A stretch of DNA of 64,000 nt from an uncultured Spirochaetales bacterium (GTDB lineage: Bacteria > Spirochaetota > Spirochaetia > Sphaerochaetales > Sphaerochaetaceae): positions 1 through 64,000 of the forward strand of contig CALXRC010000004.1 in assembly GCA_944390865.1 (NCBI GenBank), given 5' to 3'. The position numbers were made by a program, and so were the translations under genes. The notes beneath the pieces are model-generated. The model was not told the origin of the DNA, ran no database searches, and saw nothing but the letters and a program-made list of their open reading frames with translations. Below are positions 27,451 through 29,668 of this stretch, in pieces; position 1 is the stretch's first letter; each line of letters starts with the position of its first letter.

Positions 27451-28041
27451 ATGAAAAGATGCAAATGGACAGGAAATGACCCTCTGCTGATTGAGTACCA
27501 CGACAAAGAATGGGGAGTTCCTCTTTTTGATGATGACAGGCAGTTTGAGTTTCTCTCGCTGGAAGTCATGCAATGTGGATTAAGCTGGATGACAGTCCTC
27601 AGGAAAAGGGATGTAATGAGGAAGGCATTCGATGCATTCTCTCCAAAGCTGGTGTCACAATACACAGATGAGGATGTGTCCAGAATCATGAATACAGAGG
27701 GAATGATCCGATCTGAAAGGAAAATCCGTGCGGTGATCAGCAACGCAAGGCACTTCATCGAAATCCAGGAGAAACATGGATCCTTCTCTAATTTCATCTG
27801 GAGTTATATAGGCTTCAAGCCTGTGGAATATCCAGGTCATGCTGATGGAACAGTCCTCATCAGCCGTAATGAGCTGTCCGACCAGATAAGCAAGGACCTG
27901 AAGAAGCGCGGTTTTTCATATCTAGGGTCAATTACAATTTATTCTCATCTGCAAGCTGCAGGACTGATCAATGATCATTATGATTACTGCTTCAGATATT
28001 TGCAGCTAAAAGGTGATATGAATAAGTATCTGAAATCCTGA
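27451..28041 (+). CDS. tag: DNA-3-methyladenine glycosylase I
   Basis: Tag excises 3-methyladenine from alkylated DNA. The 196-aa protein begins RCKWTGNDPLLIEYHDKEWG with the zinc-site Cys and Trp of the family, continues SLEVMQCGLSWMTVLRKR (catalytic region), and retains the zinc-ligand motif HYDYCFRY near the C-terminus. There is no clear Shine-Dalgarno; TTGACA (27416-27421) and TAGGAT (27437-27442), spaced 15 nt, precede the ATG by 8 nt. Its composition is more A/T-rich than its neighbours and it abuts the IscB element, so it may have been acquired. Confidence 0.93.
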   Translation: MKRCKWTGNDPLLIEYHDKEWGVPLFDDDRQFEFLSLEVMQCGLSWMTVLRKRDVMRKAFDAFSPKLVSQYTDEDVSRIMNTEGMIRSERKIRAVISNARHFIEIQEKHGSFSNFIWSYIGFKPVEYPGHADGTVLISRNELSDQISKDLKKRGFSYLGSITIYSHLQAAGLINDHYDYCFRYLQLKGDMNKYLKS

Positions 28042-28059
28042 AATCTTTTTTCGCAGGTT

Positions 28060-28355
28060 CTGATGTGAATCAGCTTGAGTCAACTACCCCACCTTGAAGA
28101 AGGTGAGGCTTGAAAAAGCCTTGGTTGACTAGCCCAAGGTCTTCGAGACCTACGTTACGGAGGAAGATACAGGCACCGGCGGATGTTGTCCTAGTCCGCC
28201 GCTCTGCGGTCCGTGGTTAAACAGTTCTGATGGGCAGGAACAGTGCTGCGGATATATATAACCCTCCGATAACATCGGCGAAGGACAGTGAGGAGAGATG
28301 CCTCACGACAGGGATTGATCCCTGCATTACCCGTTAAGTCGGGAAAGGAGATTGC
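28060..28355 (+). ncRNA. omega-RNA (HEARO-type) of the IscB element
   Basis: The 300-base region directly upstream of iscB is full of perfect hairpins. An outer helix AGTCAAC/GTTGACT (28078-28084 with 28124-28130) encloses CACCTT/AAGGTG and GGCTT-GAAA-AAGCC. Then follow AGGTC-TTCG-A-GACCT (28137-28151), GGCGGA/TCCGCC (28178-28200), CCGAT/ATCGG (28266-28278), TGAGG/CCTCA (28289-28305) and CAGGGAT/ATCCCTG (28309-28324). Location and architecture match the RNA that guides IscB nucleases, with the guide expected at the 5' end (around 28060-28077). Exact ends are estimates. Confidence 0.85.
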
Positions 28356-29642
28356 ATGGTCTATGTAATCGCACAGAGCGGAAAGCCTCTGATGCCGACA
28401 GAACACTATGGCAAAGTCAGATGGCTTCTCAAAAGAAAAAGAGCTAAGGTTGTAAAACGCTCACCATTTACGATTCAGCTCCTGTACGGAAGCGGAAACG
28501 AAAGGGTGCAGCCTGTGACGCTCGGAGTTGATACCGGGTATCAGACAGCCGGCTGCTCAGCATCAACGGAGAACAAGGTTCTCTTTGAAGCAGAAGAAGA
28601 GATGCGCACTGATGTCTCCGAGCTTCTTACGGAAAGAAGGGAGAAACGCAGTGCGAGGAGGAACAGAAAGACAAGATACAGACAGGCACGCTTCGACAAC
28701 AGAAGACGCACAGAAGGCTGGCTTCCGCCGTCAGCAGAGGCAAGGATTTTATCTCACGAGAACATGATAACCTTAATATCTTCTTTTCTTCCTGTGTCCC
28801 ATATCGCAATCGAAACCGCCGCATTCGACATCCAGAAGATAAAGAATCCTGATATCGAAGGCAAAAGCTATCAGGAAGGGGAACAGCTCGGCTTCTGGAA
28901 CACAAGGGAATATGTATTGTGCAGAGATGGACACAAATGCAGGATATGCGGAGGAAAATCAAAGGACAAAGTCCTTGAAATTCATCATGTCATCCGTCGC
29001 TCGGATGGCGGCACGGACCGCCCCGACAACCTCATGACGCTCTGCAGCCACTGCCACGATGGCGTGCATAAGGGTACAGTAAAACCAGACTTCAAGAAAG
29101 CTCCGCAGTTCAAGGCGGAAACGCTGATGAGCATCATGCGCTGGGAGCTGTACAGAAGACTGCAGAAGCTGTACGGGAAAGAGAATGTATCAATGACATA
29201 CGGGTATATAACAAAGAATACAAGGATTACCCATAAGCTTGAGAAATCGCATTACATTGATGCCAGATGCATTGCAGGGCATCCTGAAGCCTCCTCTGAC
29301 GGGGACTGGTATTACATGCGCAAGACCAGAAGCCATAACAGGAAGATCCATAAGGATACGATTCTCAAGGGCGGCGTGAGGAAACAAAACCAGGCAGAGA
29401 AGCTCATAGGAGGCTTCGGTCTCTTCGACATCGTCAGATATGAGAGAAATATCTGCTATATCCACGGCAGAAGAAGTTCCGGATACTTTGATATAAGGAA
29501 ACTTGACGGGGACAGGATTCATTCCGGTATCCACTATCGGAATCTCGTGCTCATTGAGCGGATAAATACAAGGCTTATAGACAGGAGGAAGCCGATTCCT
29601 CTCCATTCTGCAGAGGCTGGAGTATCCTCGGCTAAAAATTGA
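28356..29642 (+). CDS. iscB: RNA-guided nuclease IscB
   Basis: IscB is the transposon-encoded, omega-RNA-guided DNA nuclease related to the ancestor of Cas9. The 428-aa protein has the N-terminal PLMP domain (SGKPLMPTEHYGK, residues 8-20), RuvC-I with D59 (LGVDTG), an Arg-rich bridge helix (residues about 93-118), RuvC-II with E153 (IAIETAAF), an HNH domain with zinc cysteines C195/C198 and C230/C233 and catalytic H210/H211 and N225, and RuvC-III with H299/D302 (KSHYIDA). A TAM-interaction-type C-terminus follows. All catalytic residues are present, so both strands should be cleavable. AAAGGAG lies 5 nt before the ATG. Confidence 0.95.
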   Translation: MVYVIAQSGKPLMPTEHYGKVRWLLKRKRAKVVKRSPFTIQLLYGSGNERVQPVTLGVDTGYQTAGCSASTENKVLFEAEEEMRTDVSELLTERREKRSARRNRKTRYRQARFDNRRRTEGWLPPSAEARILSHENMITLISSFLPVSHIAIETAAFDIQKIKNPDIEGKSYQEGEQLGFWNTREYVLCRDGHKCRICGGKSKDKVLEIHHVIRRSDGGTDRPDNLMTLCSHCHDGVHKGTVKPDFKKAPQFKAETLMSIMRWELYRRLQKLYGKENVSMTYGYITKNTRITHKLEKSHYIDARCIAGHPEASSDGDWYYMRKTRSHNRKIHKDTILKGGVRKQNQAEKLIGGFGLFDIVRYERNICYIHGRRSSGYFDIRKLDGDRIHSGIHYRNLVLIERINTRLIDRRKPIPLHSAEAGVSSAKN

Positions 29643-29668
29643 TGAAGGTTTTTTAATGGCTGTATGTT

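What the first reader, a model, noticed from the sequence alone, without database searches (positions are those of the whole stretch)
28060..29642. Complete IscB with omega-RNA and intact catalytic residues
All RuvC (D59, E153, H299/D302) and HNH (H210/H211, N225, four Cys) residues and the PLMP domain are present, and the upstream 300 bp folds into a compact multi-hairpin RNA. IscB is a known family, but this copy looks functional, is compact (428 aa), and lies alone beside tag. The guide predicted at about 28060-28077 could identify the donor site it protects or the last insertion target.
Basis: partly seen in the sequence, partly recalled or inferred. Interest (0 to 1): 0.65.

Follow-up and report, generated by a model that had tools for sequence, protein, structure and literature searches.

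The report
IscB element with omega-RNA beside tag
The window holds an intact copy of a known selfish gene-cutting element (IscB with its guide RNA); comparing it with relatives shows that such elements often sit exactly between a host gene's ribosome-binding site and its start codon, so that the guide is a copy of that site.

Summary
IscB (28356-29642, 428 aa) passes the NCBIfam IscB equivalog model (358 vs 175 bits), and the RNA upstream is Rfam HEARO (28079-28292, 142.5 vs 83 bits). All RuvC and HNH catalytic positions are invariant in a 36-member alignment. The element is not alone: a second copy (93% DNA identity, split over two contigs) and a 49% cousin exist in the same genome. Element ends are 28079 and about 29641, followed by an ATGA motif. 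The guide (28063-28078) is the left flank of the insertion; a congener (L049) carries the uninterrupted site inside a membrane-protein gene that is destroyed here. The unexpected result is general: across IscB loci from a collection of 85,000 species genomes, and again in viral contigs, the motif after the element is very often the start codon of a host gene, and the left flank (the guide) carries that gene's Shine-Dalgarno sequence at normal spacing. Likely essential genes are among them. I found no paper stating this, but recall an ATGA/GTGA target motif from 2009. The window copy itself is off this pattern.

The parts
28063..28078 (+). Guide (16 nt, ATGTGAATCAGCTTGA): host DNA flanking the left end, inside the remnant of a membrane-protein (ABC-2 permease-like) gene
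   Evidence: Immediately 5' of the left end; same flank is followed directly by the right flank in congener G012; no other match with 0-1 mismatch in the own genome. Guide length is inferred from known IscB biology.
28079..28292 (+). omega-RNA scaffold (HEARO, RF02033); left end of element at 28079
   Evidence: cmscan 142.5 bits; similarity to the second genomic copy starts at 28079
28293..28355 (+). 3' hairpins of the RNA and ribosome-binding site of iscB (AAAGGAG 28344-28350)
   Evidence: sequence; fold
28356..29642 (+). iscB, RNA-guided endonuclease, 428 aa; PLMP, RuvC-I, Arg-rich bridge helix, RuvC-II, HNH, RuvC-III, C-terminal TAM-interacting region
29591..29641 (+). Right end: hairpin GCCGA..TCGGC plus AT-rich spacer, coding for the last residues of IscB
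   Evidence: conserved across copies with different flanks up to the ATGR motif
29642..29645 (+). ATGA motif (inferred TAM / target motif), overlapping the iscB stop codon TGA by one base
   Evidence: ATGR invariant at the right border of 13 element families, identity collapses after it
28018..28078 (+). 5' remnant of a membrane-protein gene (ABC-2 permease-like, frameshifted), overlapping the 3' end of tag
   Evidence: aligned to the intact 264-aa gene in L049
29646..29691 (+). Further remnant of the same gene after the element
   Evidence: blastn match to L049 1858-1901
27451..28041 (+). tag, DNA-3-methyladenine glycosylase I (neighbour, not part of the element)
   Evidence: PF03352 226.8 bits

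Best explanation
A non-autonomous IS200/IS605-type element of about 1.56 kb (28079-29641) that carries only an omega-RNA and iscB. It is inserted 5' of an ATGA motif, about codon 21 of an ABC-2 permease-like gene that has since decayed. Transcription entering from the host side (probably from the tag operon) makes an RNA whose first 16 or so nucleotides are the host flank; IscB bound to this RNA cuts DNA in which that flank is joined directly to ATGA, that is the empty site left when the element is excised or an allele without it, and repair from the copy that still carries the element restores it. The transposase would act in trans. Shown: protein and RNA families, ends, empty site, other copies, Y1 transposase domains elsewhere in the genome. 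Inferred: transcription, cleavage, the TAM as such, repair, and which transposase moves it.
For: HEARO 142.5 bits; IscB equivalog 358 bits; Foldseek best hits are IscB/IsrB structures, 8csz E 1.5e-27 and 8dmb E 1.1e-18; catalytic positions invariant; empty site in G012, no target duplication apparent; second copy in the own genome exactly at the start codon of a FecCD permease gene, with the uninterrupted operon in nine congeners; ATGR at the right border of all families, in agreement with the NTGA TAM measured for DtIsrB (PMC9581776); full-length Y1 transposase domains at three other places in the genome. Retention by cleavage of the excision joint is described for TnpB (PMC11870625).
Against: No transposase in the element, and the ends of the tnpA loci examined do not resemble its ends. 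The G012 empty site reads ATAC instead of ATGA, so that allele is probably not a target today. The host gene is already decayed, so this copy may be old. No expression or activity data.
Confidence: 0.85

Rival explanations
1. The copy is a dead passenger: intact by recent descent but not expressed or not active.
For: It lies in a decayed gene; broken copies exist in relatives (G015:C49 with about 380 nt missing; partial copies in G008 and G015).
Against: Full-length ORF, all catalytic positions kept, complete RNA; a 93% identical sister copy at another site shows movement of the family in this lineage.
Confidence: 0.2
2. The element is a domesticated RNA-guided regulator that binds and represses a host locus, as TnpB-derived TldR proteins do.
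For: Guides of relatives lie on ribosome-binding sites, a place where binding would silence a gene.
Against: RuvC and HNH residues are intact; the guide has no other site with 0-1 mismatch in the own genome; guides differ at each insertion.
Confidence: 0.04
3. For the general start-codon pattern: no preference of the machinery at all; insertions at ATGA within genes are purged and those before start codons survive.
For: ATGA is common at start codons, and purging from coding DNA would leave a pattern in this direction (inference).
Against: By a crude count only 70 of 575 non-coding ATGA sites are start codons (12%), against 31 of 58 insertions, so loss from coding DNA alone does not give the excess. 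Selection for copies that gain transcription of guide and RNA is a further form of selection and is not excluded.
Confidence: 0.4

Closest known systems
IscB (OgeuIscB and relatives; NCBIfam NF040563)
   Same: Domain order, catalytic residues, 5' omega-RNA with guide at its 5' end, location in IS200/IS605-type elements
   Different: 428 aa against about 496; the ends of the family suggest an ATGA motif, not the NWRRNA-type motif of OgeuIscB (for large IscBs cf. PMC13180657)
HEARO RNA (RF02033)
   Same: Full-length covariance match, RNA directly upstream of an RRXRR/HNH ORF
   Different: nothing of note
IsrB (DtIsrB)
   Same: PLMP domain, large omega-RNA, NTGA-type motif
   Different: IsrB lacks the HNH domain, which is present here
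TnpB of IS200/IS605 elements
   Same: Guide taken from the flank of the element; motif shared with the transposase target
   Different: TnpB takes its guide 3' of its RNA at the right end; IscB 5' of its RNA at the left end

Membership tests
IscB | RRXRR/PLMP N-terminus and split RuvC with intact D, E, H/D | tested here: met
   PF14239; D59, E153, H299, D302 invariant
IscB | HNH domain with catalytic H and N | tested here: met
   PF01844 49.3 bits; H210, N225, four Cys invariant
IscB | Curated equivalog model and fold | tested here: met
   NF040563 358.2 bits vs 175; Foldseek 8csz E 1.5e-27 (model pLDDT 78.5)
IscB | omega-RNA 5' of the gene | tested here: met
   RF02033 142.5 bits
IscB | RNA-guided double-strand cleavage next to a TAM | not testable with these tools
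   needs a cleavage assay
IS200/IS605-type element | Defined ends, no target duplication, insertion next to a short motif | tested here: met
IS200/IS605-type element | Own Y1 transposase TnpA in the element | tested here: not met
   only iscB lies between the ends; Y1 domains lie elsewhere in the genome. Hence called non-autonomous, and placed here by ends and cargo only
IsrB | Absence of HNH | tested here: not met
   HNH present
Type II-D Cas9 | No PLMP domain, larger REC lobe | tested here: not met
   PLMP/RRXRR present, 428 aa
Type II-D Cas9 | Adjacent CRISPR array | not tested
   no repeat search was run

The most novel reading that the evidence does not exclude
IscB elements are addressed to translation start sites. 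They insert between the Shine-Dalgarno sequence and an ATGA start codon, so the guide is a transcript of the host gene's ribosome-binding site, the host promoter supplies the transcription that the external guide needs, and the host gene, sometimes a normally essential one, stays expressed downstream, in some clades through an overlap of the iscB stop with the host start codon (TGATG or ATGA).
Probability: 0.55. Interest if true: 0.65.

Novelty: new member of a known kind. Interest (0 to 1): 0.42.

Why it matters
The copy itself adds one more complete IscB from a clade with an ATGA-type motif, with its donor site documented. The general pattern would explain how an RNA whose guide lies outside the element gets transcribed, how such an element can sit in front of genes that the cell cannot lose, and what IscB guides record in nature; it makes directly testable predictions on expression of the gene behind the element.

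Tried and rejected
Searched the tnpA loci (L061-L070) for ends like those of the IscB element: only 11-nt chance matches. Searched the own genome for other sites matching the guide: none with 0-1 mismatch, four with 2 mismatches, against one for the reversed control pattern. Looked for the empty site in G014, the congener with the closest tag: the sequence downstream of tag is unrelated there. A first automatic rule for the right end mis-assigned some loci and was replaced by assignment guided by family alignments and, for viral contigs, by a weight matrix; 45 viral loci gave no confident right end and were left out. Literature: the papers of 2009 (HEARO), 2015 (ISC) and 2021/2023 (OMEGA, selfish spread) are not held; the full-text searches found no statement of start-codon insertion.

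Full report
What is there. The ORF 28356-29642 encodes 428 aa. It matches PF14239 (RRXRR) with 208.9 bits and HNH PF01844 with 49.3 bits and the NCBIfam equivalog 'RNA-guided endonuclease IscB' with 358.2 bits against a cut-off of 175. Its nearest solved relatives are IscB and IsrB proteins by sequence and by predicted fold (mean pLDDT 78.5; 8csz E 1.5e-27, 8dmb E 1.1e-18). In an alignment of 36 relatives D59, E153, H299, D302, H210, N225 and the four cysteines are invariant. The RNA upstream matches Rfam HEARO over its whole length at 28079-28292 with 142.5 bits (gathering 83).

Ends and copies. The own genome (1.96 Mb, 44 contigs) has a second copy of the same element: its left end is at the end of contig C24 (similarity begins exactly at window 28079) and its right part, 93% identical, at the start of contig C18. 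That these two contig ends are one copy is inferred from the gene order. A 49% identical cousin with its own HEARO RNA lies on C2. Relatives in the same genus hold between none and ten matches. Aligning copies of 13 element families that sit in different flanks, the right border is ATGR in every case, and identity falls from 100% to background within a few bases after it. The left border is the first base of the HEARO model. The window element is therefore 28079-29641, followed by ATGA at 29642-29645. The stop codon of iscB (29640-29642) overlaps this ATGA by one base.

The empty site. In congener G012 (L049) the left flank of the window element continues directly into the right flank: window ...GTGAATCAGCTTGA | element | ATGAAGG..., L049 ...ATGAATCAGCTTGAATACAAGG.... 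The site lies at about codon 21 of an intact 264-aa membrane protein gene which is followed by an ABC ATPase gene; by its sequence and neighbour I read it as an ABC-2 permease, but no family search was run on it. In the window only about 60 nt before and 50 nt after the element remain of this gene, with a frameshift. It has no second site with 0-1 mismatch in its own genome. The G012 allele has ATAC where the motif would be and so is probably not cut.

The second copy and the general pattern. The C24/C18 copy sits exactly before the start codon of a FecCD permease gene (PF01032), between it and the gene of the binding protein; nine congeners have the same gene pair without an element at that point. 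The best G015 copy sits between AAGGAGG and the ATG of a periplasmic binding protein gene. I then tested this on 80 IscB loci from genome contigs, with left ends from Rfam. Of 58 loci with both ends usable, 31 give, when the flanks are joined, an ORF of at least 80 aa from the ATG with the upstream frame closed within 20 codons, against 6.4% of 846 control ATGA sites in the same flanks (Fisher p 2e-19). A Shine-Dalgarno 4-mer lies 4-18 nt before the left end in 29 of 58, against 14% at random places. Right ends in this set were assigned by eye, guided by family alignments, which is a weakness; the copies are also not fully independent, since several come from one genome. On 80 loci from viral contigs, with a weight matrix that knows nothing of ORFs, 10 of 28 are start-like against 4.4% of controls (p 1e-6) and 15 of 28 have the Shine-Dalgarno motif against 13%. 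Using left ends only, 125 non-redundant flanks show a sharp peak of the motif at -15 to -8: 56 of 125 carry it in -18..-4, against 12 and 16 in the two adjacent windows. In three of four annotated plasmid records the next annotated gene begins exactly at this ATG. Genes behind the elements include signal peptidase (PF10502), the lipid II flippase MurJ, a NadD-like nucleotidyltransferase, an FtsX/MacB-type permease that looks like LolC/E, RecG and an NtrC-like regulator; several of these are usually essential (general knowledge), so the gene behind the element must often remain expressed.

How it probably works. The guide of an IscB omega-RNA lies outside the element. Insertion just behind a host ribosome-binding site puts the element under the host gene's promoter, so that guide, RNA, iscB and host gene are read as one transcript (inferred). 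In the window's clade the iscB stop and the ATG overlap (TGATG or ATGA), an arrangement that supports termination-reinitiation (PMC10666635); in most other clades the distance is 20-75 nt, where that paper found coupling to be weak, so how those host genes are translated is open. Retention would work as described for TnpB: excision restores flank plus motif, which the nuclease cuts, and repair restores the element (PMC11870625). The motif agrees with the NTGA TAM measured for IsrB (PMC9581776).

Limits. The window copy itself does not follow the start-codon pattern; it lies inside a gene that is now dead. About half of the loci do not follow it by my criteria. The null for purging from coding DNA (about 12%) rests on a crude ORF caller. 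I recall, without being able to check, that the original HEARO report gave ATGA or GTGA as the sequence after the element; the searches made here found no statement that this is the start codon of a host gene with its ribosome-binding site in the guide, but the main papers are not in the library.

Verdict. An intact, ordinary member of a known family, with its donor site identified; a general insertion rule emerged on the way that would interest specialists.

Noticed in passing
L090 1655-1866, 2075-2283, 2558-2769, 4504-4738: Butyrivibrio MAG contig with three HEARO RNAs in tandem upstream of one iscB and a fourth after it: an array of omega-RNAs, each with its own possible guide. Further multiple HEARO hits in L113 (Quinella, 2222 and 2766), L080 and L142.
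   Followed up: no
L170, G015:C2:51752-51982: HEARO RNA without an IscB ORF found downstream, preceded by AAAAGGAGTGAGGAAA, so possibly an ORF-less element that could use IscB from elsewhere in the genome.
   Followed up: partly
L036/L030, G015:C49: Copy of the same element with about 380 nt of iscB missing (window 29020 to 29401) but both ends intact: a deletion derivative that still looks mobile.
   Followed up: partly
window 29590-29645: In the window's clade the iscB frame runs through the right-end hairpin, so the protein tail (PIPLxxAEAGVSSAK) is dictated by the DNA end of the element and the stop codon overlaps the target motif.
   Followed up: yes
L278 1551 and 1570: In Anoxybacillus plasmid pDSM15939_1 the element lies between an annotated DUF84 gene and a thioredoxin gene, and the DUF84 gene now ends 20 nt inside the omega-RNA, so insertion can also change the C-terminus of upstream genes.
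   Followed up: no
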